From Undibacterium pigrum (GTDB lineage: Bacteria > Pseudomonadota > Gammaproteobacteria > Burkholderiales > Burkholderiaceae_D), in the NCBI RefSeq assembly GCF_003201815.1, contig NZ_QJKB01000001.1, positions 558,001 to 622,000 on the forward strand: a DNA stretch of 64,000 nt, written 5' to 3'. Shown piece after piece: positions 236-59,027 of this stretch. A program made the translations under genes and the position numbers. The number at the start of each line of letters is the position of its first letter. Within the stretch, counting starts at the first letter, position 1. Under the pieces are notes generated by a model, which did not search any database, was not told the origin of the DNA, and saw only the letters and a list, made by a program, of their open reading frames with translations.

Positions 236-236
236 T

Positions 237-1955: not shown

Positions 1956-1956
1956 A

Positions 1957-26763: not shown

Positions 26764-26832
26764 GGGAGTCAGGCAAAAAAACCATGTAAAAACCAGCGAG
26801 GATCGTTGGTACGTTCAAGATAGATCCAGTAG
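26468..26832 (-). repeat. Direct repeat A: dnaE2 5' end / imuB 3' end (intact copy)
   Basis: These 365 bp recur at 48634-48997 in the same orientation, with about 93% identity counted by eye. The last 70 bp, which include the imuB end, are identical. Confidence 0.85.
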
Positions 26833-39634: not shown

Positions 39635-41128
39635 ATGAAAATTCTTAGTCTTTTTGAGCAACAAATAGGAGCCTACAGAGGAAGCACGATAGAAATGCTT
39701 TCCAACTTCGAACCCACAACTGCGATTTACGGTTGGTTGGAAATAGTACGAGGAATAGAAGAGATTATCAACATCCCTGGAGCAGATAGAAGTGTCCTGA
39801 CTGCAGAATTCCTTGCAACTCCATTGAAATCAATTGTTGAGAATTTAGTTTTACTTTACAGGGCTCAAGTCAAAGTCGAATCACGCTTTGAACGAGCTAC
39901 TGGGCAGCGTTTTATTCGAACCATACTATATGCAGCTAGTTTGCAAAAACAGTTACTCGAAAATGGTAATGCGCATGCAGCAAGGACTTTGATAACCGTC
40001 CATGACTCAATTTCATTTTTTCAATCGCGTAGACGTCACATGGTCACTGTTCTTCAACTATTGCCAAGTGTTTGCCGTGGTAAAAAACGATTTAGCGCAA
40101 ATGACGATGCAATTGCGTTTTTACAAGCCGTAGAAAATGAAGTTGCTATAACCGGTTTTAGACACAAAGCAATGCTAGCGACAGTCTTTTCCGATTATAA
40201 ATTAATCAAAGAAGAGGATGGCTTACGAGGAAATTACGAATATCAACCATTAGACGATTTATTTCTTGAACCAGAACGGACATCATTAACCGATCTTAAA
40301 AACACCGACCCTGGCTCAGAAGAAGCATTCACAAAAGAGGCCTTGGATAGACGAAAAATATTCTCCGCCGCAGAAGTCCGAAATAATATTCTTTACATTA
40401 AAAATGCTTACAAAGAATTTGATCTCTCTGAAACAAATTTTGGCATTGTGGCCAACATATTTGAGAAATTACTTGAGCATTGCAATGACGATTTTATAGT
40501 TACAATTTCACCCGAACAGATGCGAGCAGCGACCGCCGAATTCAAATCCCCAGAGGAATTTCAAAAATTATTGATACATTCAAGGGCGGAATGCACAGAC
40601 AATGTGGATGATTTTCCACCATTTGTCGACGCCAACGGAGCCTACATTACTACTATCAATTTAATGCAGCGATTTCTCTACAACTACAAAAACACTTGTT
40701 TGAATAAAAACAAGCGTTACCAAGTCCGAAGTGGTTTTATTTTTGAAAATAAGGTCAAACGAGAATTGGCCAAACAAGGGTTTACTATTTCAGATATAAA
40801 ACGAATTCACCACAAGGAATTTGATGTAATAGCACTCAAAGATGGGATTATCTATAATTTACAATGTAAAAATAATCTCGTTGATTTAACTCGGATAGAT
40901 TGCAATCTCAAGTTGTTCGTGCGATATAACAGTCAACTTGTTCGATATTATCAACGCGCGCTCGCGAAGGAGGAAGGGAGAGTCGAATTGCTGGGCGAAA
41001 AATTCGGATTTACGAAAGTACGGCATTTTGTAATTAGCGGGTTTTCTGTGGCTACATCAAATCAAAACATAGTCTCATTTGCTCAATTAGGAAAATTTTC
41101 AACTTTAGTGCAAAACTTGGAAGATTAA
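39635..41128 (+). CDS. PD-(D/E)XK nuclease-like protein (497 aa), partner of the STAND gene
   Basis: ATG with GAAGGAGAG upstream, 122 bp after the NTPase gene. The N-terminal 370 residues are helical and unrecognised. The C-terminal 130 residues have the strand-helix order of a PD-(D/E)XK nuclease: SGFIFENKVKRELAKQGF, then Asp397 in HKEFDVIALKDG and Gln410-x-Lys412 in IYNLQCKNN. If active it would cut nucleic acid. Position and strand suggest that it works with, or is controlled by, the 1247-aa protein. I know of no named family with this N-terminal part. Confidence 0.65.
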   Translation: MKILSLFEQQIGAYRGSTIEMLSNFEPTTAIYGWLEIVRGIEEIINIPGADRSVLTAEFLATPLKSIVENLVLLYRAQVKVESRFERATGQRFIRTILYAASLQKQLLENGNAHAARTLITVHDSISFFQSRRRHMVTVLQLLPSVCRGKKRFSANDDAIAFLQAVENEVAITGFRHKAMLATVFSDYKLIKEEDGLRGNYEYQPLDDLFLEPERTSLTDLKNTDPGSEEAFTKEALDRRKIFSAAEVRNNILYIKNAYKEFDLSETNFGIVANIFEKLLEHCNDDFIVTISPEQMRAATAEFKSPEEFQKLLIHSRAECTDNVDDFPPFVDANGAYITTINLMQRFLYNYKNTCLNKNKRYQVRSGFIFENKVKRELAKQGFTISDIKRIHHKEFDVIALKDGIIYNLQCKNNLVDLTRIDCNLKLFVRYNSQLVRYYQRALAKEEGRVELLGEKFGFTKVRHFVISGFSVATSNQNIVSFAQLGKFSTLVQNLED

Positions 41129-44300: not shown

Positions 44301-46269
44301 GGACGAAACCAACCTCGCCTGGTGCCTTCTCGATGATTAGTCCCTGGGTCTCGGAATTGACGGAAAGAATTTCGTTGGCGGCTGCACCAGCAAAGTTCTC
44401 CACAGCATTGAAACCCTCCGGCGAGAGAAAATACTGGCGCAGAACCTTTAATGCATCATCTTTCGGAATGCCTGCACCACCAGCCTGTTCTCGCACTGCC
44501 AGCGCAAGTCGTGAAATTGCCGCACGCCTTAAGCCAGGCTCGGTAGCGTGCTGGAAACGAGGGACAGTGTTTCCCGAAGCTACGGCACGGTTTTCAGGAT
44601 GTACTTCGAGCAAAATAGTTACTAGTTCGTCATATACCTTTCCTCGCGTTCGCGGAAGTATTTGCCCTCGCAAAGCAAGAGTTATCAAACCAACAAGCAA
44701 CAATGGGACCGATGCTAGCGCTCCTAAATTGGCATCGCGCGCCAATTCGGCGATAAACCGGTTAGTGCGAAGAACGCCTTCGGATATGTCTGAACTATTT
44801 GACGTCGCTGTCGCATAGCGTTCGAACCAACTGTTGGCAATTTTGAACTGTTGGAGTTTAGACAAAGGAGCAACTGTACCGCGCCTCCATTCGGCAGGCA
44901 ACCCACCGATACGATTCAATCCACGAGGCCTGCCAGAAACAACAACTGGAATTCCATGGGCCTGAACCAACGTCACAAGTGCGTTAAGAGTTACCTTGGC
45001 CGCCTGTACATTGCTCCACTCATCAAGTCCGTCTATGAGTAACAGAATGCGTCGGTCGTCGATACTCCGGTCCAGTAAATCTGCAATTGACGTAGTGAGA
45101 AATTGATCAAGCGAACCTCTCACAATCTCTTTAATACCGATTGCATTATCGTCCCTAGCAACTAACGCTGACCAACGCGCGAAAGGAATATAGATAGGAA
45201 TGTGCTGACCCCAGCGTTTTGCCAACTCTGAAAAATGCTCTTGATGATGTAGCAAATCGAGCGCAATAACACGTAGCAACGTACTTTTGCCGCTTCCGGC
45301 TTCACCAAGCAAGACCAGTCGCTGTTGATCGCCTAGCCATTCTACTAAAGGTAATCTTCGAGTGCGCCCGGCGCTTGTTGGATCAGTCCGGTTGCTGTTG
45401 GGTTCCATCTCCAGTTGCGGTGTGCCTTCAATTCCTCGAGTCATTCGCGAAGTATTGTTGGGGTCAATATTTCCACTATCTATTGTCTGCAGTTTCTCGC
45501 GTACCAATATGTCTGGTTTGAAGAACCGATTAAGCAAAGCTAATGATGAACCAACATCGTCATCTATCGAACCAAAGCTACCTGGATCAATAGTGTGAAA
45601 TTGAGCTTCGTAAACCTTGGCTAGTTGCGAGCGGACCTTTGCGAACTCAGCTCCATCCAAACGGGCACCAAGGGCGTTTGCGACATCCGTTCCGAGCAGT
45701 GCAACAACCCAAGGTCGACCAAAAAAGTCGTCGACTAATGTCGGATGCGCTCGCAGCCGATCAGTTAGGCTTTCAGCGTCAAGCGCATCGAAAGCAATAC
45801 CCCGGCCATTGAGTCGTACTACTTGCCGTTCTATTTCTTCTTGCAAAGCGGTAGTGCGAAGTTGCGCTTGGACCGCGATAGTAAAGCGTAAAGCTCGATC
45901 GGCCCAACTGCCCCCAAGAAATAAGTCAACTGCATCACAAAGTTTGGCCGGACCGAAACTGCTATGGCGCTTTGCCTGTACGCAATGGTAGCGGCCATTA
46001 GCGAGACGAGCGTAAATATCGATACCTTCCTGCGCTTCTCCTTGCTGACCGTATCGTGCGCAATATTCGACGTCGCCATCAAGAGCCGTCAGTCTTTCGC
46101 AGAGTTTTTCGAAATTCTGCCAACTCAATGCACCAAATGGCAGAAGCAGGTCACGGGTTGTTACGGGAGGGTCTGACGGCACTGCATCAGGCGGGCTGTG
46201 AATGTTAAGTGGTTCGGGGGCAAGTGGTGAGATTTGCATATCTATATACTGCCACAGCGCCAATTTCAT
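41353..46269 (-). CDS. Mrr-like nuclease / NACHT NTPase / helical-repeat protein (Avs-like), 1638 aa
   Basis: The N-terminal domain is Mrr-like: Glu54 in NFEKLCERL, Glu81-Gly-Ile-Asp84 in EGIDIYARL, and Gln98-x-Lys100 in HCVQAKRHSS. A NACHT ATPase follows, with Walker A GEAGSGKST (322-330), Walker B ILLLIDGLDEW (408-418) and VVVSGRPRG as sensor 1. From about 700 to 1638 there are HEAT-like helical repeats (many DxxVRxxA-type helices). This is the order seen in Avs defence proteins, which recognise a phage component and then degrade DNA. The start at 46269 has no clear ribosome site; ATG 46239 is possible. It is convergent with the first STAND operon. Confidence 0.8.
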   Translation of the reverse strand: MKLALWQYIDMQISPLAPEPLNIHSPPDAVPSDPPVTTRDLLLPFGALSWQNFEKLCERLTALDGDVEYCARYGQQGEAQEGIDIYARLANGRYHCVQAKRHSSFGPAKLCDAVDLFLGGSWADRALRFTIAVQAQLRTTALQEEIERQVVRLNGRGIAFDALDAESLTDRLRAHPTLVDDFFGRPWVVALLGTDVANALGARLDGAEFAKVRSQLAKVYEAQFHTIDPGSFGSIDDDVGSSLALLNRFFKPDILVREKLQTIDSGNIDPNNTSRMTRGIEGTPQLEMEPNSNRTDPTSAGRTRRLPLVEWLGDQQRLVLLGEAGSGKSTLLRVIALDLLHHQEHFSELAKRWGQHIPIYIPFARWSALVARDDNAIGIKEIVRGSLDQFLTTSIADLLDRSIDDRRILLLIDGLDEWSNVQAAKVTLNALVTLVQAHGIPVVVSGRPRGLNRIGGLPAEWRRGTVAPLSKLQQFKIANSWFERYATATSNSSDISEGVLRTNRFIAELARDANLGALASVPLLLVGLITLALRGQILPRTRGKVYDELVTILLEVHPENRAVASGNTVPRFQHATEPGLRRAAISRLALAVREQAGGAGIPKDDALKVLRQYFLSPEGFNAVENFAGAAANEILSVNSETQGLIIEKAPGEVGFVHASFEEYLGAEYISGLPFEDIKNFVRTHAGESRWRNVITNLLGFIQRRDEFNQLIEIIEEPANDELLAIERQTLLGDIAFGTTMRSPDTNRRLAFAAMERVEIEDWLPARREALASVLKGLSDPMLKTDVEKRLRRWLPDRYSYRSSLIEILSVWQPSQELQDLFFRAMHDTDPNIKRAGAAAFANVFSSSVDAFQRLLVGLTRSRDCITAAAMLESLALGWPKVAEVLPLFEEARKSQASELRLIGTLGLAISGNISDEERGFVLHSQSYYSGLSYAYRNLAIEMLIKYWPRDESLLQGALLRISHSNGTLWEYDAAFAYLMKSPIENADVRNWILKELRNDHPFNTGRDLESWVKVGKIAAVDAEVRAAATAYWCKSNSATFYIYNLPGYVENVADEQILKILIDVLADLKSRFGRYWALTALLKGWGRDHPSVKPILDALAAASDEELFDLASLVPQIISNQEVARERLIRLGTQKQVRRDLLTTGLAACGCGANDNEAVSSILAFPEGFFGPYSYSTAFFSTFGAHADVRAFALERVRELNGPLTSIATAYANDPEFVAPIFDAATPLPVDLRTQIIEIASSGAPGTALEMVLSQGMLENDPELCSQMVIAHHRTLRLEERSTAQSALLSKAVSIGPNYESFRAAALAGLATIGALDSLASLEDVGKPVAIRTSNLSDGIVSVQRLVCERFSDFQVAFGDSLEERFESSSNGRRVAEILSVAPGASPAARAAFLSYAERGEIPRTPQALRALAVERPSSELLLFRCFDALKRSDRRNDTALINSEVALILREHFAGNEDVRAKLVELFAKRPSAETEISLAIFAPESSELRFSSNFDGLGHQLADWAVAVHKAVSRADSATFCNLLETMVSRPRLTNFDAQHITNLAVGERLQRDTDLEAMMSVKIAIDVDPSVSGSFARYLAAAGKLSTEVRSTTVNLLQDFQSKQRLPVTGYDAIADQWRAVRATLLDAISAGIDS

Positions 46270-46727: not shown

Positions 46728-48269
46728 ATGTTAGATTCAAAAATCATTTGGAAACGTGCTGGCAGCTTGACAGAAAACGATTTGGTCGAATGCGCGACAT
46801 TATTTTCAGCACATTATGGAATATGGGCAGAAGGAGCTGGAAATAGAGCAGGCAAGCGCGTTAGGCAAAGTGCTGGCACATTGAAAGATAATTACCTTCG
46901 CGGACCCGAATCGTGGGCGGCCCAAGCATATCACGGCAATGAATTGATAGGTTATGCGTTCTACCAAAGATCGGATTTGGCCGGGAAAGGCCACGTCACT
47001 TGGGTAACACAGTTCGTGGTACACAAGGACCATCAAAACAAGGGACTAGGTACGCGAATTTTGCGGGCGATTTGGAGTCAGTCCAAACAGTATGCTTGGG
47101 GGTTAGTAACTGCAAATCCCGCGGCGGTACGTGCATTGGAGAAAGCAACATTGCGTAGGTGTGAAGTAACGATGATCCAGAAAAACTGGTCAGCACTTAA
47201 AAACCTGGTCTCATCCGATTTGCCATACATAGCAGCAGTATCTAAACCGATGCGAGAAGGAACTACCGCAGTCGATACAAATTTTCCATTGGATCGGACA
47301 GAATCAAACGCGACAATGGACAGCTTGATGAGTCGAGGACACGATTGGCAGTTAGGAATTCTTGGTCCTTTGGAAGAATGGGCAGCATTTACCTTTTCAG
47401 AACAGGCATATTCAACTGAAGCGAGCTCCTTGGTAAGGGAATGGATTGCTGACTGCGATTCAACAGTAGTTGATGCATATCAGGGCATGGCACTTGATGC
47501 TGATCATAAGTGGCAGAGCAAAACGAAACATGAAGTAGATTATTTTCTTAAGTCTATCGAGTCTCCATCGAAAGCAAAAATATTTGATATTGGATGCGGC
47601 ACAGGTCGGCATTCAATAGAGTTGGCTGCTAGAGGCCACAATGTAGTGGGTGTTGATACGGGATCAGCACTATTGGAAAAAGCGATTCACTCAGCCAATT
47701 CAATCTCGAATATTAAGTTCGAATGCTGTGACGCAAGACTATGGAGACCAAACGAGAAATTTGATTGCGGCATCTGTCTCTATGACGTCGTGGGATCATT
47801 TGCAGACGATGTTGAAAATGCCAAGATATTGACTACAGCTTATTTTTGTTTGAAGCAAGGTGGATATTTCTTATTAACCGTTATGAACGGCGAATTGATG
47901 GATTCAATAGCACAACATCGCACAGACAACGAAAATTTACCTATGAATTTGCTGAGTTTGGAGCCTTCGCCAACTATGCAGGATACTGGCAATATTTTTT
48001 CACCTAAGTACGTATTGTGGCATGACGAAAAGGGTGTTGCTTATCGGCGTGAACTGTTTGAAAGTGAAAAAGTTGCCCCCTGTGAACTAGTGGTGAGGGA
48101 CCGAAGATATTCGAAGCAAGAGATCAAGCAATTGTGTGAAACGGCGGGCTTTGAAGTTGTTGATATCCGGTATGCAAAGTTGGGTGCGTGGGGAAATGAA
48201 GTTGGACCTACTGATTCCAGCTCAAAAGAGATTATTATTTTGTGCAAGAAGCCTAGCGAATCAGTATGA
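46728..48269 (+). CDS. GNAT acetyltransferase / SAM methyltransferase fusion
   Basis: 513 aa. Residues 8-150 form a GNAT fold with TWVTQFVVHKDHQNKGLGTRIL (acetyl-CoA loop QNKGLG at 103-108). Residues 260-400 are a class I methyltransferase: motif I IFDIGCGTGRHSIELA (core 287-293), an acidic residue ending strand 2 (Asp310), and FDCGICLYDVVGSF as motif IV. Both cofactor sites look intact. A fusion of these two activities is uncommon; it might modify one small molecule, peptide or tRNA twice. It is a single gene in the island with no partner. No clear ribosome site was seen at the ATG. Confidence 0.8.
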   Translation: MLDSKIIWKRAGSLTENDLVECATLFSAHYGIWAEGAGNRAGKRVRQSAGTLKDNYLRGPESWAAQAYHGNELIGYAFYQRSDLAGKGHVTWVTQFVVHKDHQNKGLGTRILRAIWSQSKQYAWGLVTANPAAVRALEKATLRRCEVTMIQKNWSALKNLVSSDLPYIAAVSKPMREGTTAVDTNFPLDRTESNATMDSLMSRGHDWQLGILGPLEEWAAFTFSEQAYSTEASSLVREWIADCDSTVVDAYQGMALDADHKWQSKTKHEVDYFLKSIESPSKAKIFDIGCGTGRHSIELAARGHNVVGVDTGSALLEKAIHSANSISNIKFECCDARLWRPNEKFDCGICLYDVVGSFADDVENAKILTTAYFCLKQGGYFLLTVMNGELMDSIAQHRTDNENLPMNLLSLEPSPTMQDTGNIFSPKYVLWHDEKGVAYRRELFESEKVAPCELVVRDRRYSKQEIKQLCETAGFEVVDIRYAKLGAWGNEVGPTDSSSKEIIILCKKPSESV

Positions 48270-48633
48270 CAGAGTTAATATATCATTAAGTTGAGCTGTA
48301 CGGATGTTTGCCTATTGAAATTTGGCTCTGACATCCTCATTAGTTTCCAGTACATCGAACCTAATGGCCAACTATTAGCGAGTTAATATGAATTGACCAT
48401 TTTTCATACCGCCAGAGCCGCCTTCCAATTCAGCATTTAACTCCTTGCGCAAAATGGCGATACAGTCTGCAGAAGGAAATCCTGAACAGTAATTAGTTTT
48501 TCAAAATTGAATTTGTCAGAAGGTATGTCCATTCATTTACAAGTTAGATAGACAAAATTTTTCAATTGATGTTCTAATAGTTGTATATGAGATTCGAATG
48601 TCCATTTTTTCTGAACTTAGAATTACAGACAGG
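48270..48633. other. Non-coding junction before the dnaE2 fragment
   Basis: About 360 bases. A minus-strand frame ending near 48380 (CIAILRKELNAELEGGSGGM) has no start codon and may be a gene tail. Nothing else can be supported. Confidence 0.35.
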
Positions 48634-48997
48634 TTGCCATAGCCATTTTTATTTTTGGCCAGCACAATCAAATTGAATGGCGGGCTATGGTTTTCAGGGG
48701 TAACGATCATCTGGCTGCCGATAATCAAATGCAGGCCATGCTTTTTCGCCTCGACGTGCGCCCGGACGACACCGGCAACACTACATTCATCTGTAAGGCC
48801 AGGGCTTGGTAGCCTAGCTTGACGGCACGCTGCACAAGGTCTTCCGGTGATGATGCCCCCTTGAGAAAACTGTAGTGGCTAAATGTCTGTAGCTCGGCGT
48901 ATGTCGGCAGGATAGATGGGATCGACATGGGAGTCAGGCAAAAAAACCATGTAAAAACCAGCGAGGATCGTTGGTACGTTCAAGATAGATCCAGTAG
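48634..48997 (-). pseudogene. Fragment of a second imuB-dnaE2 locus (direct repeat B)
   Basis: It encodes, on the minus strand, the first 100 residues of DnaE2 (MSIPSILPTYAELQTFSHYS...KNKNGYGNL), broken by a one-base deletion near 48800, plus the last 23 codons of imuB. It matches 26468-26832 at about 93%, with an identical last 70 bp. Both ends are abrupt: on one side unrelated AT-rich DNA after GYGNL, on the other an unrelated reading frame. The divergence suggests a piece of a related allele and not a recent copy. Confidence 0.85.
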
Positions 48998-49590
48998 CCG
49001 ACCAGTCCCTCGGTGGTTCCACGGCTAACGGAAATCCAGGCGAACGGGACGCCGTCATTCGGGCGTCTGGTCAAGAATTATCCATCTATGAGGCATTGGT
49101 GTGTTCTAACCTAGATAAGGCTTACACAAAAAAGCACTTTGACAAGCTATTGTCGTATGGCCTCTGCGATATCTATTTCCACGTCACTTACTCATATGCA
49201 GAAAAGATCGAGACACTACTCAACTATGTCAGAGAAATGCTGGAATACGAGGCCCCAACCGGACTCACGTACAAAAGGTGTGAACTTCTTGGAACACCTG
49301 ACCACGAAACAAGCGGTTATATTGCGACATATAGCGCAGGGCATCGTGAGGTTGCGGTGGTGTTCTTTATTGCAGATTTAAAGGTACGGAAGCAATTATC
49401 TTGTTGAACGGAAAACAGGATTGGTTGACTTTGTATTCCCAAGTATTATTCGGGGCAGACAGATCCATGATCAGATTCCAATGCAGCACATCGCTAAACG
49501 ACTAGGCGCTGGTCGCGCTTGGAGTGATGTGCGTATTAAATACGGATTGGGCTTAAATGCGCGAATCAGCATTTCAATAAATCTAAGATA
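48998..49590 (+). pseudogene. 5'-truncated unknown gene with frameshift
   Basis: From the breakpoint with the imuB fragment an open frame reads DQSLGGSTANGNPGERDAV, then SIYEALVCSNLDKAYTKKHF and VAVVFFIADL, to a stop at 49407; a TTG at 49096 could serve as a start. After that the sense shifts to another frame (YGSNYLVERKTGLVDFVFPS, GAGRAWSDVRIKYGLGLNAR) ending at 49590. It looks like the 3' part of a real gene that lost its start when the dnaE2 fragment was joined to it, and then frameshifted. Family unknown. Confidence 0.45.
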
Positions 49591-49703
49591 TTAGAATTAT
49601 AGATAAAATCCGCCCATGTTTTTTAATAAATTCTGCAATAACAGAATTTTAGGAAATGGATGTCGACATTTAAGTCCGGTGCTTTACCGCTTAGGAGATC
49701 TGT

Positions 49704-50134
49704 GTGCACATATTTTGCGACGAATCTGGCAACACGGGCAGTGACCTCCTGAACAAGGAACAGCCTCTTTTTTCCCTTGCATCAACCTGTCTTGACGCTG
49801 ATGTTGCAGCAGGACTTGTCGGGCCTCTCCTTTGTAGAGGTCAGACCGAGGCGAAGTATAGCAAGCTAAAAAGTAGTGTTTCTGGCCAAAAAACGCTCAT
49901 CGAATTCTTTATGTCGCCAGAATTATCAAGCCTGACCGGCAAGGTTTTGCTTGCTGACAAACGCTCGCCGGAGCCGCCATTGATGCGTTACTTGCTTGGT
50001 CTGGCAAACGGCCTGCACAGGTATATCACGAGAATTTAAAAACAACTCAACTTCAAAATATGATTGAAGGCGGGGTGTTACCAACCGCCAAAATGGAGAA
50101 AAGCGCGCCGCCAGTGCCTGGAAAAAAAGTCTAG
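49704..50134 (+). pseudogene. DUF3800 gene, truncated and joined to a foreign tail
   Basis: GTG start with TAGGAG 7 nt upstream. The first 90 residues (MHIFCDESGNTGSDLLNKEQ, then KVLLADKR) are the N-terminus of a DUF3800 protein, a family with an RNase H-like fold and usually 200-350 aa. After LLADKR the frame runs on only to 50039. Another frame continues as AGAAIDALLAWSGKRPAQVY...PPVPGKKV to a stop at 50134, the tail of some unrelated gene. DUF3800 proteins often lie in defence islands and mobile elements. The gene is broken here, though a 111-aa peptide could still be made. Confidence 0.55.
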
Positions 50135-50435
50135 TCGATGGCTCAGCGGATTTCCTCCAGGAAATTGGTTACCGAGCATAAGCGAAGAAGCCGGAATCGA
50201 GAACTCAGCGTTTTAATATTTGAGCTAAACGAGCATCTCTCGCATACGCCAACTGCACTCCGAAGTCACAGAGCCAGCCTGTCCAGAACGACAAATAACT
50301 TGTGCTACATCGGTACATAAGGAACTTTCCATGTTAATCTTTAGATATTGCGGGCCCCATCAAGAATTCGCCAATAGACACGGAATCTGACCGGGGTATT
50401 TATGGAAAATGTACCATTTACATTGAGAGCTCCAC
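50135..50435. other. Intergenic region before the unknown two-gene module
   Basis: About 300 bases with no convincing gene. It must contain the promoter of the 713-aa gene, but no clear -35/-10 pair stands out. Confidence 0.4.
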
Positions 50436-52577
50436 ATGGAAGTCGGTCCGGTACTCGTTTTCCCAAAGTTCACTTCGGTATCGCTGCCGGTGAGTGGAGT
50501 CATTCTCACCATTCCTGAACAGGATACATTCGTACCGCAGGCGCGAGACGAAGTCACCGACTGGGCAAGCTACTCGGCCTCGTACTACACGATGCGTACA
50601 GCTGCTAATGCAGTCCGAGTGCTCATTCAATCAGAGACTCTAATTAGCGAACGGAATCAACTGTTGCGTGAGTTGTCAGAGCGCATGGAGAGCGCAACGA
50701 AATTCCGCCAAAGCCTTGGTGCTAACCCATCGAACTCGCCAATTGAAGATCCGTTTTTGCCTGCGCCGCCGTTCCCGCGTACCCAAGAACGTGTTGTCGA
50801 TGCACGATTGGCTCTATCCTCTCTTTTGCACGACGTCGCCGTCGCAGATCTGAAAACTCAGGCGGCGCCAGCGCTCCCAGTCGCCTTGGAAAGCCGTCTC
50901 TCGATACCTGTCGAGAAAGTCAATTTCTGTTCAGCGCTTTTGAACCTCGATGTTCGCGCCACTCAGCGTCTTGCCTGCGAAGGAATCGCGACGCAAATCC
51001 GCCATGATGCAGAGATCTTCGTTCCAGAAATAGAACATCCGGCGTGTCCTTTTCAACGGATTCGATTAAACGATCCTGTTCTCTACGCTGGACATCAGAT
51101 CACCTCGACAAAAGAAGAGTTCGAACAATTCTTGGCAAGATTCGAAGACGCCGCCCGAACCTATTGGGGAGGGCTCGAAGTCGCGCAACTCTGGAACCAG
51201 AACGACATAGACGCCCTTATTTCTTGGGGTGTCATCTTGCCCGAAAAGATCAGAGGGCGATTAGATAACGATGGCCCCGACATCGAACTAGCAGAAGTCC
51301 GTCTAAGCTGGCGGGAGAGAGTTGATCTGATTTCAAAGCAATGGAAGGAAGTCGCGGAACGCATATCGCAGCACCAAAAAATGCTACAAAGCATCGGTGC
51401 CAACTTCCTATCTTATTTTACCAACGGATGGCCAACGACTGCCCCCGTTAATGCAGAGGATAGAGGGATATGGATCGCCCAAGAGGCAGCTAAGGCACTG
51501 TATGGAGACATGTCCTTTGCACAAGGTCTAGAGACTAGCTTGAGCAAATTGGGACCGATAATTCTGAACTATTTGTACCTAGAGGCGAGCAAGGAAAACG
51601 AATTAGGGCCTCCTGTCGATATCAAGGTGCGCCTCAAGACTTCTACGATGGCCGTAGTCACTTATGCTGTAAGCGAACTTATGGCCACGCAGTTCGAGTA
51701 CCGAATCGGCGAACTTGGTGGAATTCGATTTCAGTTCGGAAAGCAGTCTCTGCCCAAACTTTCGCAAAGAGATTTCGATATACTTGATCGACTCGAACCC
51801 GGCAGCCTACCAAACGGCCGTGATCTTGGTGTCCCAGTTACTTTTCAACGAGAGGCCCTCAGAAATCCTCGGGCACTGGATACGCGAACTCAAGATATAG
51901 AGCAATGGCGGATGGATTTCGAAGACTTCCTGTCCCCAGTTCAGCTTAAGGATGCTCCACTGCGACTTTACAGAAGGATTTACGAGCAAGTCGCACAGGA
52001 GGTGGGCCTGATCCGAGCCGGCGCGGAAAATATTGCGAAGATCAATGACCTCCAGTCTGCGGTCGAAGCGATTAACGGGAGGCTCGGCGTAAACTCCGAA
52101 AGCGACCCCGGAGTTACCCTTCCAGGCGATAACCGGGTAATTGCCGTTCACGTTTCGAGCGGGGAATTCATCGGTAGCGGGAGGCCGGTTCTGACATTGC
52201 GCGAGGCATTTCGTGTAGATGCCAAGGTGTTCATCGATATCGACAGCTATTCGTCGATCACGATGCCGCCATTGACAGTTTGGTTGGTGTCCATAAACGG
52301 AATTGCCCAGATCGAAACAAAGGTGCAGTTCGCTGCAGTAATTGGAACGGCTCAAACGCAAGACGACAAGACATTGTTGGTCGACACGGAAATCTTCGCG
52401 GTCATAAATTCCATGCCGACAGGTATTCCCAACCTACCTGAGTTTCTACCCCTGTCATCTCGATTTCTTGAAGCCGCATATACAGGCGTTACGCAGGACA
52501 TTCTGGATCGTACCGAGTTCTTGTTGACGTCTATTCGCGGCAAGGCGTCGCTGGAACTTCTCCGGCGGATCAACTAA
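50436..52577 (+). CDS. Unknown 713-aa protein with a C-terminal lipoyl/HlyD-like segment
   Basis: ATG with GAGAG 7 nt upstream. No signal peptide, membrane helix or NTPase motif. The first 120 residues include a coiled-coil stretch (AANAVRVLIQSETLISERNQLLRELSERMES), and the middle is mostly helical. Near the C-terminus, residues 567-588 (VIAVHVSSGEFIGSGRPVLTL) have the V-x-x-G-x-x-V-x-x-G-x-x-L pattern of barrel-sandwich (lipoyl/HlyD adaptor) domains, without a lipoyl Lys, and are followed by strand-rich sequence. This may be coincidental. The next gene overlaps it by one base, so the two form a unit. I know no family for it. Confidence 0.65.
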   Translation: MEVGPVLVFPKFTSVSLPVSGVILTIPEQDTFVPQARDEVTDWASYSASYYTMRTAANAVRVLIQSETLISERNQLLRELSERMESATKFRQSLGANPSNSPIEDPFLPAPPFPRTQERVVDARLALSSLLHDVAVADLKTQAAPALPVALESRLSIPVEKVNFCSALLNLDVRATQRLACEGIATQIRHDAEIFVPEIEHPACPFQRIRLNDPVLYAGHQITSTKEEFEQFLARFEDAARTYWGGLEVAQLWNQNDIDALISWGVILPEKIRGRLDNDGPDIELAEVRLSWRERVDLISKQWKEVAERISQHQKMLQSIGANFLSYFTNGWPTTAPVNAEDRGIWIAQEAAKALYGDMSFAQGLETSLSKLGPIILNYLYLEASKENELGPPVDIKVRLKTSTMAVVTYAVSELMATQFEYRIGELGGIRFQFGKQSLPKLSQRDFDILDRLEPGSLPNGRDLGVPVTFQREALRNPRALDTRTQDIEQWRMDFEDFLSPVQLKDAPLRLYRRIYEQVAQEVGLIRAGAENIAKINDLQSAVEAINGRLGVNSESDPGVTLPGDNRVIAVHVSSGEFIGSGRPVLTLREAFRVDAKVFIDIDSYSSITMPPLTVWLVSINGIAQIETKVQFAAVIGTAQTQDDKTLLVDTEIFAVINSMPTGIPNLPEFLPLSSRFLEAAYTGVTQDILDRTEFLLTSIRGKASLELLRRIN

Positions 52578-53521
52578 TGGCGACCTACACCTTGCTCGGG
52601 CAAAGCCGCATTCTTCAGAATGCAGTACGAACCACTACGATGCCTTACAAACTAAATTATAGAGAAAACTACTCGATACCGACAGTCGATGCAGTTCCTC
52701 TGGTGATCGAGAATATGGAGTTTATTGATCGCGTCGAAGCTACATCTTCCAAATTTACGGCAAATGGCGTCTGGCTAGATGCGGTTGCAGAACGTAAGTT
52801 TCACACGGGCGACGACGAGGCGTCGCGTAGAGCGGGTGCCGATTGCCAGCCCGATTGGAACTACAAGGCTCAGAACGACGGGCGAGCCGCTGGCGAGGGA
52901 GAGAAACTCGGTAACTTCAATTATGGCGCCACAGGATATTTGCGGGTCTACGACCTGCTAAAGTTAACGGGACTTCCGATTGAAATAGCTTCTGAAACCG
53001 CCCGGTGGATCGTGAGATTCGGTGGCGGTGGGTACCAACTTTTCAGCGATGCAGGTAAACTCTATCGTAATGCAGAAAAAGGGCGTTGGGGTCTAGTCTG
53101 GAATACTAATTTTTTTTCAAAGCAACGCACATTCTATGGAGAGGACCAGGGCGACGTTGCCAACGTTGAGTCAGGTATCAACTTCGGCGAATTCCTTCGT
53201 CTAAGCGGGATCGCACGCCAGGCGGGTGTTCGTTTGGATCGAGAGAATTTTGGTTTCAACGAACCTGAAACGTCATCGTGGTCTGGAACTTTGCTCGAAA
53301 AGCCTTTGGATGAAAGCGGACAGTTCCAACAATGGAGCACCAGAGTTTTAGACGATATAGAACGTTGGAGAACTGAAGTGTCGGCTCGTAATTTCCAAAC
53401 GGAGAAAGCGCAGATCTATGAACGCGCCCAGAAACTTCGTCGTGCCGAGCAACAGAGCGAAGAAGAATGGACCGACACAGACGATTTCCCGTTAAATCCT
53501 GTGGACACCGAAGGGCCGTAA
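52577..53521 (+). CDS. Unknown 314-aa protein, second gene of the module
   Basis: TAATG overlap with the 713-aa gene. It is soluble, with many aromatic and Gly residues (GNFNYGATGYLRVYDLLKLTG, RWIVRFGGGGYQLFSDAGKLYR, NFFSKQRTFYGEDQGDVANV) and a charged helical C-terminus (RVLDDIERWRTEVSARNFQTEKAQIYERAQKLRRAEQ). No catalytic motif is recognised. Tight coupling with the 713-aa gene suggests that both products act in one complex. Location between DUF3800 debris and the SIR2-STAND operon points to a defence or mobile-element role, which is only inference. Confidence 0.65.
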   Translation: MATYTLLGQSRILQNAVRTTTMPYKLNYRENYSIPTVDAVPLVIENMEFIDRVEATSSKFTANGVWLDAVAERKFHTGDDEASRRAGADCQPDWNYKAQNDGRAAGEGEKLGNFNYGATGYLRVYDLLKLTGLPIEIASETARWIVRFGGGGYQLFSDAGKLYRNAEKGRWGLVWNTNFFSKQRTFYGEDQGDVANVESGINFGEFLRLSGIARQAGVRLDRENFGFNEPETSSWSGTLLEKPLDESGQFQQWSTRVLDDIERWRTEVSARNFQTEKAQIYERAQKLRRAEQQSEEEWTDTDDFPLNPVDTEGP

Positions 53522-53531
53522 ACGCGGTTTC

Positions 53532-53684
53532 TTGGATACGTTCATTGCCACTGAGTCTGTGGTTGGCATTTTGAACGAGGTAGGTAATAATTCTCACTCG
53601 AAAGTTACCTTCCTGACTTACGCCGATGCCAGTGGCGTATCGCTTGCTGACTTTATCAGATCCAAGGTAATAACGAACCCATAG
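53532..53684 (+). CDS. Possible small protein or frameshifted tail of the module
   Basis: A 50-codon frame from TTG 53532 to TAG 53684 reads DTFIATESVVGILNEVGN, then KVTFLTYADASGVSLADFIR. It looks protein-like but has no ATG and no ribosome site. It lies one frame off the end of the 314-aa gene, so a frameshifted extension of that protein is equally possible. Confidence 0.3.
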   Translation: MDTFIATESVVGILNEVGNNSHSKVTFLTYADASGVSLADFIRSKVITNP

Positions 53685-53715
53685 ACTAGGTTAGTTTCGG
53701 CACCCACACTGCGCA

Positions 53716-56700
53716 TCAATAGACTGCAATATCTGCGATCTCTGGAGTTTCCAATACTGCAACTGGACCATTAAAAGAGAATCCAATAAAAACGTGAATT
53801 ACTCCTGACGCATTCGTCTTTAAAGGAGCGTCAATTTGAAGCTCAGGAACACTAGCCATTGCTCGATTGCCGACCAATCGAGCATTACATTGAAAGCGCC
53901 TTGGATTACCATTCTTGTCTTGAAAGATCGCTCGGATTGAATTTGGTTTGTGGTTAGTAGAGTTTTCTCGACGCAATTGGGCAAAGGTGGCATTCGCTTC
54001 GGTTGTATTATTGAGATGAAAATATGCAACTGCTAAATAGAATCGCTTCAGTACATCATTCTCGAACTTTGGATCTAGTAACACTTCAAGCAAATCATCA
54101 CAAAATACATCCCAATCAACCTCCTTAAACCCCTGTATTTTCCATCGCACAACCAGATCGACACGGATACTCAAAAATTCTGTGGTTGGTTTGCTTCCGC
54201 CTAACTCGATGAGTGCGAAACATTCCCGCAGATAACTATTTAGCTCGTTGTAGTCCTTCCCCTTGCCAGTTTGGCTGGCCTCGACGAGCTGTCGCCGTGC
54301 GGCCAACGCGAACCCGCTTTGTCGCGCCGTCCTTTTGAATAATTCAACTGCCATCGATTTGAGTCGGTCTGAATCTGGAATAAGTCCTAAGATTTTGCGT
54401 TGCAGGTCTTCCAACATTCCGATTGTTTTATTATGTTGAAAAGATGTTCGTGCTTTTGCTCCAACGGTTTGATATGCTCGTTCTATTTCCTCGAATGCCC
54501 TCAGGGTAAGTTTGTCAGCAATCTCTCCGTCTTGCCGCTGTACTGCAAGTTGAGCTAGCTCAAACCTGAGGTTTGCCGCTACGTGCGATGTGTGGGCATT
54601 AAAAAATGTCGGCGAAGCGGCAAGGCTTAAATGATGTTCTACGGTTTCCGCCCCCATAGTCCATTCCACCGCACCGTTGCGAACTTGTTGAAGCATTGCA
54701 GCAGCCATCGACGCATGAATATGCTCTCGCGGGGCATCCCGATCAGAACCGCTAGAGGCAGCACTACGAAGAGCCTTTTCCATTTGACGATATGCAGTTC
54801 CGTCTTTAGGACCTTTATCTTGAATCCAGATGCCGAAGTGATGCTCGAGCAGTCGATCTTCAAACGGCAAGTTGTCTAAAGCTGCTTCGTACAACTCATA
54901 TCCTTGTTCGTATGAAAAGAGATCTCCCAGTTTATGTCTCGCGCGTACTAGTACGTCTATCAAGAAGCCTCGATAAGGCGCGGAGCCGTCTTTGCATGCT
55001 ACGATCAGCTCTTTCAACACTCTTACTTCGCCCATATGACCTGCCAAACCACCATTTACAAGGTCAATTAGTACCTTTGTGACGACATCATTCCGCGTAA
55101 AGTACATTACCGTCGTGCCGTCGTCAGACATATCGTCATATAACAATCCCCATAGCGGTCTGCCATTTTCAAGAGACCCTATCCATGCAGCGTAGTCGAT
55201 ACCTAGCGCGTGGACTAAAACTTCTACGGGGAGCCCAATACCGAGTCTGGTACTGACAGTGACGTACTCGTAGGCCTTATGAGCCTGTTTCCCACTTACC
55301 ACTAACGACTGCGCGAGTTCCGGAATATTTGCTACGTCACCTAATCTGAAATACTCGTCCTTCAAAGATTCGGCAAGTTGAGATTTAGTTTCGGGGACCA
55401 AATACCAAAGACTGCAGAGTATGTCTCGCGCATTCTTAATTTGAGCGGTCTGTACAAGGCTCATGGCCTTCTCTACCGTGGTAACGGCGCCGATCTTCAA
55501 TAACATCTCTGACATCTGCTCCATCTCTCCGTCAGAGAGTTCAAAAGGAATATCGATTTCCTTATGAGCGATCGTCGATGTGGTCGCGGTCCGTAACTCA
55601 GAGAGATAGCGATCAGTATTTCGCAACGTGACCACCAAAGTCGTCGGAATCGGCGATTCTTCCAACGCGACAAGAGCGTCAGCCGAGTCAATTCGTAAAG
55701 CCCAAGGATCGTCGCAGAACAGTATTAGATTTTTGAAGTGCTTGTCGTGAGACTTCTTCAACTCGGTAAACAACTCGTTGACCCACTTCTTAAACGAACG
55801 CAGCCACAGACCAGATGTGACGCGACGGCACCATAATACTAACGTTCCGTTCTCAGATACTTCGAGGGCGACCCTTTTTGCGATGGTCGTTTTGCCTACT
55901 CCCGCGTCTCCAACTAACAATACGACGCGCGGCTGCTTAGGGCGTGCGAGTGACACTTGTAAGCGAATTTCGTTAGCGATATCGCTAACGCAATCGCGTT
56001 TCAAATCGAGATTCGCTTGAAATGGCCGCCAGTCAGACGACGCAGGACGAAACAGGCTATCGATGCAACTAGGTTTTTCCAACGGGCTCAGTTGTAACGT
56101 TGTTTCTTCAGCTATGGGGACAACAGCAACTGGGCTGTCGTAGTTGCTTGCGAAGTCTTGCACCAGACGAAATGGTGTTTTTAGCGGAGCGAGGGTTATC
56201 GCAAGACTTCCAAGGCTGCGTTGCTTCGAAACTAGTTCAGTGAGGTCTCGCTGAGAGCCATCAACAACCGCGACGTCGAACTTCTTTAAGATCGCCCTTA
56301 TAGTTGGATCCTTTAAGCAGGGATCACCTTTCAAAAACCGAAGTTTTGTGATTCGAGGGCTGCTTTGCGTAGCAAAGAGACTTAAGACGTCTCTCAAACG
56401 TTGCAATGCTGACTCAAAACCTAATACGACGAGTGGCGCATCTCGCAGGTAGTTCGATAGACTGTTCATCATACGCGACCATGACTGCTTGCGTAGGAGG
56501 GTGTCCGCATCGGATAAACAAACGGTTCGCTCCTCCTCACTGTTATTTAGATTGCCCAAGAGTTTGTATATTGGGTAGGATCTACTAGGGGGTTCAACGG
56601 AAGCGTGATCGACAATTGTTACCGATTTCGATGATGGAACGCCATCAGTGTAATTTCTCAGAGCCTCCTCTAATATCAAATCTTCAGTCATTGCGACATA

Positions 56701-57018
56701 GGCAGACCATCCCGCTAATACTATGTGTGGAACTTCAAGCGAGGGTTTTAGTCCCCGAAGCTTTTCAATGAGGGCATGGGTCAATAGATCATGCTTTTCT
56801 GGGTGCAATTCGAAAGCCGCATCGACCGCCGCCGGATAATCTACATCTGAAGCATCTGATGCGAGAATGCCAGAGAAACCAAGCCTAGCAAAAACATCAT
56901 AGAACGCCTCGGCAAGCTCTCCTGGCACACGAGTAACGCCTGGTCCAAACAGGAGTCCCGGCCTCAGAGTTAAACTTGACAATTCCTCTTTGAATAATTC
57001 TAGGTCCATTTCACGCAT
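53716..57018 (-). CDS. SIR2-like / STAND NTPase (Avs-like), 1100 aa
   Basis: The N-terminus resembles the SIR2-like domain of defence proteins: LLFGPGVTRVPG (23-33), SYPIYKLLGNLNN (147-159), CLSDADTLLRKQSW (167-180) and DAPLVVLGFES. Where family members have a catalytic His in KLHG, this protein has Leu154, so NAD hydrolysis is doubtful. A P-loop NTPase follows, with Walker A GDAGVGKTT (370-378) and Walker B LILFCDDPW (431-439). The rest is helical, TPR-like. SIR2-STAND proteins deplete NAD on phage infection; this one may instead rely on its neighbour, a nuclease-like protein encoded 9 bp upstream in the same operon. Confidence 0.75.
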   Translation of the reverse strand: MREMDLELFKEELSSLTLRPGLLFGPGVTRVPGELAEAFYDVFARLGFSGILASDASDVDYPAAVDAAFELHPEKHDLLTHALIEKLRGLKPSLEVPHIVLAGWSAYVAMTEDLILEEALRNYTDGVPSSKSVTIVDHASVEPPSRSYPIYKLLGNLNNSEEERTVCLSDADTLLRKQSWSRMMNSLSNYLRDAPLVVLGFESALQRLRDVLSLFATQSSPRITKLRFLKGDPCLKDPTIRAILKKFDVAVVDGSQRDLTELVSKQRSLGSLAITLAPLKTPFRLVQDFASNYDSPVAVVPIAEETTLQLSPLEKPSCIDSLFRPASSDWRPFQANLDLKRDCVSDIANEIRLQVSLARPKQPRVVLLVGDAGVGKTTIAKRVALEVSENGTLVLWCRRVTSGLWLRSFKKWVNELFTELKKSHDKHFKNLILFCDDPWALRIDSADALVALEESPIPTTLVVTLRNTDRYLSELRTATTSTIAHKEIDIPFELSDGEMEQMSEMLLKIGAVTTVEKAMSLVQTAQIKNARDILCSLWYLVPETKSQLAESLKDEYFRLGDVANIPELAQSLVVSGKQAHKAYEYVTVSTRLGIGLPVEVLVHALGIDYAAWIGSLENGRPLWGLLYDDMSDDGTTVMYFTRNDVVTKVLIDLVNGGLAGHMGEVRVLKELIVACKDGSAPYRGFLIDVLVRARHKLGDLFSYEQGYELYEAALDNLPFEDRLLEHHFGIWIQDKGPKDGTAYRQMEKALRSAASSGSDRDAPREHIHASMAAAMLQQVRNGAVEWTMGAETVEHHLSLAASPTFFNAHTSHVAANLRFELAQLAVQRQDGEIADKLTLRAFEEIERAYQTVGAKARTSFQHNKTIGMLEDLQRKILGLIPDSDRLKSMAVELFKRTARQSGFALAARRQLVEASQTGKGKDYNELNSYLRECFALIELGGSKPTTEFLSIRVDLVVRWKIQGFKEVDWDVFCDDLLEVLLDPKFENDVLKRFYLAVAYFHLNNTTEANATFAQLRRENSTNHKPNSIRAIFQDKNGNPRRFQCNARLVGNRAMASVPELQIDAPLKTNASGVIHVFIGFSFNGPVAVLETPEIADIAVY

Positions 57019-57027
57019 CAGAATTCC

Positions 57028-57789
57028 TTATTCGACGAATTTTTCGAGTCTTGTAAACGAACCACTTGAACCCCACTCTTCGAAGCCACTTAATGCTAGC
57101 CCGCCTAACTGAGGGGCGATGGCTGCAAATAAATCACAGAAGCCACAGGCAAAAGCACGACCGCACCCATTAAAGGCGCTAATCTTAATCTTGCCACCGA
57201 CGACGCGAGGAAACGCTAAAAAATTGTTACCTAAGATCAAACAAGTTGGCAGGCAATGGCTACTCTCATTTAGTGGGAAATGAGTCTTGAGTACTTCACC
57301 GAGTGTAGATATCGCACTTTCAAGGTCACGGGTCACGGGCATTTCGTAAAAAATAATTCCACTCCAAAGATTTGGCAAAGTAAGTGTGCGGCCCATCGCC
57401 ACTGATCTGACTTTCTTCACGTTCTCTATCGCGTCATCCAAAGTCTCTTTCGAGAAGTTAGATTTAACTTCTATTGTTGCCAGCATGGACGCTGGATCTA
57501 TAATCGAAACGCCCCCTTCGCAAAAATATGGCAGATGCATGCGTCGATTGAAGAGCAAGATGTCAATCTCAGGTGAACAACCTTCTTGATCATTTACGCT
57601 TCGGACAAATCCAGTAGAACATTCACATTCATTTGGCAGATAACGAATAAGAAAATCTCGAAGAATTGCCTCTTTGTGGTGCCCATCTGTTAGCCAATGA
57701 GCCGATCCGATTAGTTGCCTAACCCGGTCTTTTCGTGCTTGCAGCTCAGCTCCCCAAGATTCCAAATATGCCGCAATATCAGGCTTCAA
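57028..57789 (-). CDS. DUF6602-like, PD-(D/E)XK nuclease-type protein
   Basis: 253 aa, first gene of the two-gene operon with the SIR2-STAND protein, 9 bp apart. The core shows a nuclease-type active site: Glu40 in GHHKEAILRDFL, Asp76 in SPEIDILLFNR, and Glu107-x-Lys109 in LATIEVKSNFS. This layout matches DUF6602 as I know it. Four Cys near the C-terminal region (GCGRAFACGFCD) might bind a metal. The protein could be the effector that the STAND protein controls. Confidence 0.7.
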   Translation of the reverse strand: MKPDIAAYLESWGAELQARKDRVRQLIGSAHWLTDGHHKEAILRDFLIRYLPNECECSTGFVRSVNDQEGCSPEIDILLFNRRMHLPYFCEGGVSIIDPASMLATIEVKSNFSKETLDDAIENVKKVRSVAMGRTLTLPNLWSGIIFYEMPVTRDLESAISTLGEVLKTHFPLNESSHCLPTCLILGNNFLAFPRVVGGKIKISAFNGCGRAFACGFCDLFAAIAPQLGGLALSGFEEWGSSGSFTRLEKFVE

Positions 57790-58096
57790 CTTCGTTCTCC
57801 ATTGTTTTTTTGAATTATTGTGGCGCTCTATTTATTCTAAGCGGCTTGAAATTCAAAATGCGAAAGTCTGTGTTCCTTGACCAGTGTTATCAGAACGTAA
57901 CTAACCGCCCACCGCGGTTCTCACTGCTTATTCGCATGCTAATGCGAGAGACACTTAATGTCGAGGAATAAACTATCCTTCCAATTGAAAATTGAACTAG
58001 TGAGAGTTGCTGTTTGTTAAACCCGCAATTGGGGGGTAGGGGGGCGCCGAGAAGGCGCCGTTTAAGAATCCAGTGTTCTGTCAGGAAATTTTCAAA
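57790..58096. other. Intergenic region between the SIR2 operon and the IS3 relic
   Basis: About 300 bases with the presumed promoter of the DUF6602-SIR2 operon. A small GGCGCC hairpin lies at 58043-58059. No gene is supported. Confidence 0.4.
58043..58059. terminator. GC-rich hairpin next to the IS3 relic
   Basis: GGCGCC - GAGAA - GGCGCC, a 6-bp stem followed by GTTT. It could be a weak terminator or part of an insertion-sequence end. Confidence 0.3.
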
Positions 58097-59027
58097 CTAG
58101 TTGTCGCCTGAGAGTTGCATTTGTCTCGCTTTTTTCAGTTCCAGATCATCCTCCTTGCTGTTGACGACTTCTTTGACGCCTTTTCCTGGGTTCAAGTTCA
58201 CGACGGTGATCGGTTACCAGTTGCGTGTGGCGCCACTCCCGCGCCGCGGATGTCGTGCCTTTGCCGTTTTGTAGAGTTCGGTTCGTTTTCCCAGAAGTTC
58301 GTCGTCCTGTCCCACATGACGTTGCGATGGCGTCACGAATTGCACGGCGCTGTGGCGGTGCTCCTGGTTGTACTAGTGGACGAACGCGCCTACCCATTGC
58401 CGGGCCGTCATCAGGCTGACGAATGGGTTTTTGGGATAGGAGGGGCGGTATCTCGTGGTCTTGAAGATGCTCTCGTTGTGCGGGTTATCGTTGCTGCATT
58501 TCGGACTGCTAAACACCGGCGTGACCCCGAGTGCCATCAGCGTGGCCAGCATCGTGGCGCCCTTCATCGTGCTACCATTATCGGAGAGTAGCACTACCTG
58601 ATTCGGTACGATCTGCTCACGTTGGCAAATGTCGAACATAACGTCGCTCGCCAGTTGGCCGCTTTCGCTGTCATAGACTTGCCAGCCGACTATCTTACGG
58701 CTAAAGATATCCATGAACAGGTATAGATAAAAATAGATTCCCCTGACCTGCGTCGGCAGGTAGGTGATGTCCCAGGAGAACAATTCGCCCAATGTCCTCG
58801 CGCATAGCGCACGCGGTTTGCGCCGCAGTTTGCGGAGGCTTGTTGGCACTACGGTGTTTGAGCTGGTTCGTGGCATTGAGCACGCGATAGATCGTCGACT
58901 CCGAAGCCACATACTCTCCCTGATCGGGCAGCCGAGGCACGATCAGGCTGGTCGGCAGGCGACCGAATTCTGGCGAGTTGGCGACCGCCAACAGGTTCTG
59001 GCGTTCGAGCTCGCTCAATTGATTCAT
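58097..59027 (-). pseudogene. IS3-type transposase (OrfB-like), inactivated
   Basis: The minus strand encodes an integrase-core transposase: MNQLSELERQNLLAVANSPEF at the start, the DDE core with SWDITYLPTQVRGIYFYLYL, SRKIVGWQVY, LLSDNGSTMKG and SPKCSNDNPHNES, then a HWYNxEHRHS-type region. It is broken by a frameshift near 58830, a TAG at 58373-58375 where Trp is expected, and a TAA at 58214-58216; the frame then runs to a TAG at 58097. No OrfA or complete IS ends were found, and the 5' side is cut at 59031 by the IS21-like relic. It cannot be active. Confidence 0.8.

What the first reader, a model, noticed from the sequence alone, without database searches (positions are those of the whole stretch)
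50436..53684. Unrecognised, tightly coupled two-gene module (713 + 314 aa) inside a defence island
Seen: two long genes joined by a one-base TAATG overlap, with no signal peptide, membrane helix or NTPase motif; the first has a coiled coil and, near its end, a barrel-sandwich-like V-x-x-G-x-x-V-x-x-G pattern. A protein-like 50-codon frame follows. Inference: the products form one complex. Position between broken DUF3800 DNA and a SIR2-STAND operon fits a cargo defence system. I cannot link either protein to a known family, so this is the best candidate here for something undescribed.
Basis: partly seen in the sequence, partly recalled or inferred. Interest (0 to 1): 0.75.

Follow-up and report, generated by a model that had tools for sequence, protein, structure and literature searches.

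The report
Ntox44-like toxin with unknown partner
Two tightly joined genes in a bacterial defence island look like a toxin module: the second carries a very diverged copy of a known antibacterial toxin domain, and the first, with no relative found in the searches made, may be its carrier or controller.

Summary
The two-gene unit is real: 713 aa (P1) and 314 aa (P2) sharing one base (TAATG), with coding-like codon use. The claim that neither protein can be linked to a family fails for P2: residues 93-205 are a diverged Ntox44 (PF15607, "bacterial toxin 44") domain. Pfam misses it (14.5 bits on a sub-stretch; cut-off 24), but a profile of 25 Ntox44 rows scores P2 at E=2.5e-11, against 0.2 for the best of 500 shuffles. 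P2 departs from ordinary Ntox44 toxins: 109 residues follow the domain, no gene-sized frame follows on its strand, and the genome has no T6SS TssC or contractile sheath. P1 has no relative in the searches made. It shows mixed signs of a HlyD-like split barrel-sandwich (second half at 557-605, weaker for a first half near the start). My reading: a two-part toxin module in which P1 carries or holds P2. Whether it strikes rivals or kills its own infected cell is open. Side result: 18 of 27 ORFs behind other Ntox44 genes have a hydrophobic N-terminal segment, against 21 of 106 controls, which suggests that Ntox44 acts at the envelope and is not a cytosolic RNase.

The parts
50436..52577 (+). P1, 713 aa, no relative found; partner of P2
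   Evidence: ORF, codon bias; no match above cut-off in NCBIfam, PADLOC, PHROGs, Pfam and none in PDB sequences
50475..50516 (+). P1 residues 14-27: possible first half of a split barrel-sandwich domain (weak)
   Evidence: first-half profile from own-genome adaptor proteins: 9 of 2000 shuffles of residues 1-60 score as high; but only a 14-residue match, and 0.9 bits on the whole protein, below at least 14 of 968 ORFs
52104..52250 (+). P1 residues 557-605: barrel-sandwich / HlyD-like second half (moderate support)
   Evidence: 11 of 20 sub-threshold foreign hits cover 557-589; the 8 of these sent to Pfam are all Biotin_lipoyl or HlyD proteins; own-genome HlyD_3 profile: 0 of 2000 shuffles of residues 540-610, rank 3 of 968 ORFs
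52575..52579 (+). TAATG stop-start overlap of P1 and P2
   Evidence: sequence
52577..53521 (+). P2, 314 aa, Ntox44-like toxin protein
   Evidence: ORF; profile E=2.5e-11
52853..53191 (+). P2 residues 93-205: core of the Ntox44-like domain (WNYK, GNFNYGATG, GGGYQ, YGEDQGD, ESGI)
53192..53518 (+). P2 residues 206-314: tail after the toxin domain, unusual for Ntox44; helix 249-301 in a low-confidence model
   Evidence: no Pfam match for the tail; helix in the model; tails of relatives

Best explanation
A two-part toxin module. P2 is the toxic part: a diverged Ntox44-like domain framed by P2-specific N- and C-terminal segments (shown by sequence comparison; toxicity itself is inferred). P1 is encoded just before it with a stop-start overlap and is probably its dedicated partner (inferred). 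P1 may contain a split barrel-sandwich fold like that of HlyD-type adaptors, with a very long middle region between the halves and no clear membrane anchor (moderate to weak support). I think that P1 oligomerises and holds P2, perhaps through P2's tail, keeping the toxin inactive or presenting it to the cell envelope, where Ntox44 domains seem to act. The step that releases the toxin, and whether the victim is a neighbour or the phage-infected cell itself, are not shown.
For: P2: top Pfam match of the sub-stretch is Ntox44, 14.5 bits; a profile of 25 Ntox44 rows gives E=2.5e-11 against 0.2 for the best of 500 shuffles, hhalign probability 97.3 over residues 93-205; single-sequence matches to two accepted Ntox44 proteins at 1e-6 and 1.7e-6, the same two being the best foreign hits in a search of 398 genomes; 15 invariant columns in a 10-row alignment. 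P1: 11 of 20 foreign sub-threshold hits cover residues 557-589, and the 8 of these sent to Pfam are barrel-sandwich proteins; HlyD_3 profile: 0 of 2000 shuffles of the segment and rank 3 of 968 ORFs. Envelope action: 18 of 27 ORFs behind other Ntox44 genes have a hydrophobic N-terminal segment, against 21 of 106 control genes, Fisher p=6e-6. Coupling: TAATG.
Against: P2 is below Pfam's cut-off, and its DxK and DxxxD motifs read NxK and ExxxD. P1's best Pfam match is not HlyD but DUF7931 (residues 51-93, 16.7 bits, E=0.0059, cut-off 27). The whole-length adaptor profile puts P1 seventh, behind six of 1000 shuffles; the short profile on the whole protein is a tie (7.4 against 7.3 bits); segments 1-60 and 540-610 were chosen after seeing where hits lay; the first-half profile gives the whole protein only 0.9 bits. 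No experiment or second copy shows that P1 and P2 work together. Neither has a clear export signal, and none of the annotated neighbours is a transporter.
Confidence: 0.45

Rival explanations
1. Intracellular abortive-infection or toxin-antitoxin-like unit: P1 is sensor and inhibitor, P2 the toxin freed on phage infection, killing its own cell.
For: Defence-like neighbours; controller-first gene order with overlap; no downstream ORF that could be an immunity gene; no T6SS TssC or tail sheath in the genome; no clear export signal.
Against: ORFs behind other Ntox44 genes often look membrane-anchored, so the domain may be harmless in the cytosol; no PADLOC match for P1 or P2; P1 shows no recognised sensor or NTPase domain.
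Confidence: 0.33
2. An exported antibacterial (polymorphic) toxin delivered by an unrecognised route, P1 acting as carrier or adaptor and the target being other cells.
For: Ntox44 is listed as a domain of exported polymorphic toxins (PMC3482391, passages); one genome of the same family bears an Ntox44-like frame overlapping what looks, by recall, like a PAAR protein; HlyD-like signal in P1.
Against: No clear secretion signal, no TssC or sheath, no downstream ORF for immunity, toxin domain not at the C-terminus.
Confidence: 0.3
3. Remnant or decaying cargo: a former toxin operon that has lost its immunity and export genes and no longer works.
For: Remnants lie upstream (DUF3800 piece, DnaE2 N-terminal piece).
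Against: Both ORFs are open over their length with coding-like codon use.
Confidence: 0.12

Closest known systems
Ntox44 (PF15607, 'bacterial toxin 44', polymorphic toxin type 44)
   Same: GNxxxG motif and 15 invariant columns shared with 9 Ntox44 proteins, among them W94, K97, E109, N113, G117, G151, Q154, G188, D193, G200
   Different: below Pfam cut-off; NxK and ExxxD variants; insert after the GATG block; 109-residue tail; no downstream ORF for immunity; no carrier domain recognised in P2
HlyD/CusB-type periplasmic adaptors (PF13437, PF16576)
   Same: second-half barrel-sandwich signal at P1 557-605 and perhaps a first-half signal at 14-27, in the same order
   Different: no clear membrane anchor, about 530 residues between the halves, no recognised transporter beside it; HlyD_3 match only 13.5 bits, cut-off 22.2
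Two-gene toxin-antitoxin / abortive-infection modules
   Same: overlapping two-gene operon among defence-like genes, toxin second
   Different: the first protein is 713 aa and matches no model above cut-off in the libraries searched

Membership tests
Ntox44 (PF15607) | score above Pfam's curated cut-off (24 bits) | tested here: not met
   no match for the whole protein at E up to 1; 14.5 bits, E=0.046, for the sub-stretch, best-ranked family
Ntox44 (PF15607) | homology by profile comparison | tested here: met
   E=2.5e-11 against 0.2 for the best of 500 shuffles; hhalign 97.3%
Ntox44 (PF15607) | GNxxxG motif (PMC3482391, passage) | tested here: met
   G112-N113-F-N-Y-G117
Ntox44 (PF15607) | DxK and DxxxD motifs (same passage) | tested here: inconclusive
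   NxK (N95-K97) and ExxxD (E189-D193); the same variants occur in members above the cut-off: NxK in L021, L023, L027; ExxxD in L012-L016
Ntox44 (PF15607) | domain at or near the C-terminus of the protein | tested here: not met
   109 residues follow in P2; 12 or fewer follow in 25 of 30 relatives' frames, 25 to 136 in the other 5 (two of the 25, L036 and L040, end at an inner stop)
Ntox44 (PF15607) | toxicity | not testable with these tools
   needs expression
HlyD-type adaptor | HlyD_3 family score above cut-off (22.2 bits) | tested here: not met
   13.5 bits, E=0.12, on a 150-residue stretch
HlyD-type adaptor | both barrel-sandwich halves in order | tested here: inconclusive
   0 of 2000 (second half) and 9 of 2000 (first half) segment shuffles reach P1; whole-protein tests rank P1 seventh and first by 0.1 bit, and 0.9 bits for the first-half profile
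HlyD-type adaptor | membrane anchor or signal peptide | tested here: inconclusive
   hydropathy only: 1.68 over residues 6-24, borderline, with a lysine and two prolines inside; frame open only 3 codons upstream
T6SS effector | T6SS in the same genome | tested here: not met
   no PF05943 match in a genome scored 100% complete; E. coli control positive
Known anti-phage defence system | PADLOC model match | tested here: not met
   0 families for P1 and P2 at E up to 1

The most novel reading that the evidence does not exclude
The pair is the first member of a new kind of two-component toxin: a soluble HlyD-like scaffold (P1, barrel-sandwich halves at both ends of a very long middle) that stores and presents a free-standing Ntox44 effector (P2) to the envelope, serving as an anti-phage suicide device or a new route of toxin delivery, and needing no immunity gene because the toxin is harmless in the cytosol.
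Probability: 0.22. Interest if true: 0.78.

Novelty: new variant of a known kind. Interest (0 to 1): 0.48.

Why it matters
It places a toxin domain known from exported polymorphic toxins in a compact two-gene unit without a recognised carrier, secretion machine or immunity gene, among defence-like genes. If the partner works like an adaptor protein, that would be a way of holding or delivering a toxin of which I know no example. The often membrane-anchored proteins behind ordinary Ntox44 genes also question the standing 'RNase' label of a family found in many bacteria.

Tried and rejected
Housekeeping or structural-phage proteins: rejected. No NCBIfam, PADLOC, PHROGs or Pfam family above cut-off for either protein (weak leftovers for P1 are phrog_27400 at E=0.056 and DUF7931 at 0.058, the latter 0.0059 on a sub-stretch). 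No PDB sequence match (one hit at E=1.2). Phage records: none for P2, three at E=10 for P1.

Relatives of P1 or P2 (counts include the own genome). P2: 98 genomes of relatives (own only); 398 of the phylum (E up to 0.1: own plus 12 others, best 0.0016; the two best are ordinary Ntox44 proteins). P1: 98 (own only), 398 (own only), 369 of the class (E up to 0.1: own plus 20 others, best 0.0077). The sets overlap. Pattern scans of genome contigs and viral contigs gave no confirmed relative; they miss distant ones. tblastn of plasmids gave none for P2 and two hits at E=0.6 and 10 for P1.

Structure prediction: both models, made without an alignment, are poor (mean pLDDT 35.5 for P2, 34.4 for P1), so no fold search was run.

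P1 as a biotinylated protein: rejected by eye, since EAFRV stands where the biotin-bearing EAMKM (recalled) would be. P1-P2 inserted into the DUF3800 gene: the downstream frame gives no Pfam match, so not supported. RNA feature: none in Rfam above gathering score for 48000-58500. Promoter and terminator scans are at chance level. Literature: no held paper with at least three of HlyD, polymorphic toxin, two-gene operon and barrel-sandwich; none with all four of polymorphic toxin domain, anti-phage defense, abortive infection and effector domain; 13 papers name Ntox44 (listing only, six then read in passages).
Full report
Observation. Codon use supports both (+0.160 and +0.161 bits per codon in the sense frame, at most +0.071 in any other). 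Neither has a convincing membrane helix; P1 residues 6-24 are borderline (hydropathy 1.68). The 50-codon frame behind P2 is no better than random (86th percentile) and matches no Pfam family.

P2 is not familyless. Whole-protein scans miss it, but two sub-stretches within residues 92-220 have Ntox44 (PF15607) as best Pfam match at 14.5 bits, below the cut-off of 24. I collected Ntox44 proteins from two PF15607 searches of 143 and 249 genomes (2 and 12 genomes matched) and from plasmid and phage records (16 and 14 matching records, of which I fetched 7). Of these 28 loci, 24 passed a phmmer search seeded with one of them (L004, L028, L029 and L030 did not) and gave 25 rows, one gene being present as two pieces. 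The profile of these rows scores P2 at E=2.5e-11, while the best of 500 shuffles reaches 0.2; hhalign gives 97.3% over residues 93-205. With P2 alone as query, two accepted Ntox44 proteins match at 1e-6 and 1.7e-6, and the same two are the best foreign hits in a search of 398 genomes (0.0016 and 0.0018). An alignment of P2 with nine Ntox44 proteins has 15 invariant columns, among them W94, K97, E109, N113, G117, Q154, G188 and D193. Of the motifs given by Zhang et al. 2012 (PMC3482391, passages read: all-alpha; DxK, GNxxxG, DxxxD), GNxxxG is literal; the other two read NxK and ExxxD, variants also present in members above the cut-off. I therefore call it Ntox44-like: homologous, but too diverged for Pfam's own threshold.

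How P2 differs. In 25 of 30 Ntox44 frames at most 12 residues follow the domain (two of the 25 end at an inner stop); the other five have 25 to 136, the largest being a gene that reads in two frames. P2 has 109. No frame of 80 codons or more on the same strand starts within 250 bases behind P2. The genome, scored 100% complete, has no TssC/VipB and no contractile sheath (E. coli is positive in both controls) and no match to the Ntox44 family model. So the usual T6SS setting is missing. In one genome of the same family an Ntox44-like frame overlaps what looks, by recall, like a PAAR protein.

P1. No relative was found: 98 genomes of relatives, 398 of the phylum, 369 of the class, genome contigs, viral contigs, plasmids, phages, PDB. 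Its best Pfam match is the uncharacterised DUF7931 at residues 51-93, 16.7 bits with a cut-off of 27. In one search there are 20 foreign hits, none at 0.001 or better. I count 11 of the 20 as covering P1 residues 557-589. I sent eight of these eleven to Pfam, chosen because they cover that stretch, plus two others: the eight are 5 biotin carboxylases and 3 HlyD/CusB adaptors, the two others are unrelated. The remaining ten hits were not checked. Tests against profiles from the host's own adaptor proteins (23 rows, two from one gene; 22 rows in the HlyD_3 profile) are mixed. The whole-length profile puts P1 seventh, behind six of 1000 shuffles. The short HlyD_3 profile puts P1 first of 2000 shuffles, but only just (7.4 against 7.3 bits), and third of 968 ORFs. 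Taken as segments, P1 540-610 beats all 2000 shuffles with the second-half profile and P1 1-60 beats all but 9 with the first-half profile, while each does worse with the other profile (217 and 1465 of 2000 shuffles reach them). The segments were chosen after seeing where the hits lay, the first-half match is only 14 residues long, and on the whole protein the first-half profile gives 0.9 bits, below at least 14 other ORFs. I take the second half as probable and the full HlyD-like split as possible. AlphaFold models without an alignment are unusable.

Where Ntox44 acts. I looked at the ORF behind each Ntox44 gene. Of 30 frames, 27 have a following ORF, and 18 of those 27 encode a hydrophobic segment (17-residue mean of 1.9 or more) in the first 70 residues; among control genes of the same loci it is 21 of 106 (170 genes, 106 with a following ORF; Fisher p=6e-6). 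The threshold was set after I had read the list. The 30 frames include two from one Serratia locus and one close pair from the same genome (L048, L049). Several of the nine that fail have lipobox-like or slightly weaker hydrophobic starts. Anchored proteins of this kind are what one expects of immunity proteins facing the periplasm, so the family's RNase or nuclease label (repeated in PMC6079546, PMC12165300, PMC7790226 and PMC9134191, passages read) deserves a test. PMC9635880 (passage) cites Ma et al. 2017 as having characterised Ntox44 among nuclease domains; the paper that I took this to be (DOI recalled) is not held, so I could not check what was shown.

Neighbourhood. Upstream lie a NACHT protein with a weak Mrr-like start (41353-46269), a GNAT-methyltransferase fusion (46728-48269) and remnants of DnaE2 and DUF3800; downstream, convergent, an nSTAND protein (53716-57018) behind a DUF6602/PD-(D/E)xK protein (57028-57789). 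This fits a defence island but does not prove that the pair is a defence system.

Verdict. The pair is a toxin module of a known toxin kind in an unknown two-gene form. The Ntox44-like identity of P2 is well supported (I would put it at 0.9). The working model, P1 holding or carrying an envelope-acting P2, is inference. Antagonism and abortive infection remain about equally open.

Noticed in passing
L005-L010, L031-L051, L116, L117 (Ntox44 loci): ORFs directly behind Ntox44 genes often encode an N-terminal hydrophobic segment or lipobox (18 of 27 by hydropathy, 21 of 106 control genes), suggesting envelope-facing immunity and an envelope target and not a cytosolic RNase.
   Followed up: partly
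window 41353-46269 (-): 1638-aa protein with an Mrr_cat-like N-terminus (19.7 bits, below cut-off 21) and a NACHT domain (42.2 bits): a probable defence gene.
   Followed up: no
window 35769-39512 and 39635-41128 (+): 1247-aa protein with a sub-threshold STAND/AAA signal in its first 344 residues and a 497-aa neighbour without Pfam or NCBIfam match; possibly another undescribed two-gene defence unit.
   Followed up: no
   Followed up: partly
window 46728-48269 (+): Fusion of a GNAT acetyltransferase and a SAM methyltransferase in one 513-aa protein.
   Followed up: no
window about 48540-49000 (-): Remnant of a DnaE2-type N-terminus (PHP 24.1 bits, below cut-off 26.4; DNA matches to error-prone DNA polymerase genes of Janthinobacterium, Variovorax and Burkholderia-type plasmids), while an ImuA-ImuB-DnaE2 set lies at 23620-28902.
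   Followed up: partly
window 81-4005 (+): Two long overlapping ORFs (624 and 688 aa) without Pfam match at E up to 0.0001 or NCBIfam match at 0.001; they look like a recombinase pair by recall only.
   Followed up: no
L051 11300-12400 (Serratia marcescens plasmid AP028481): An Ntox44 gene there reads in two different frames, i.e. looks broken; left as it is.
   Followed up: no
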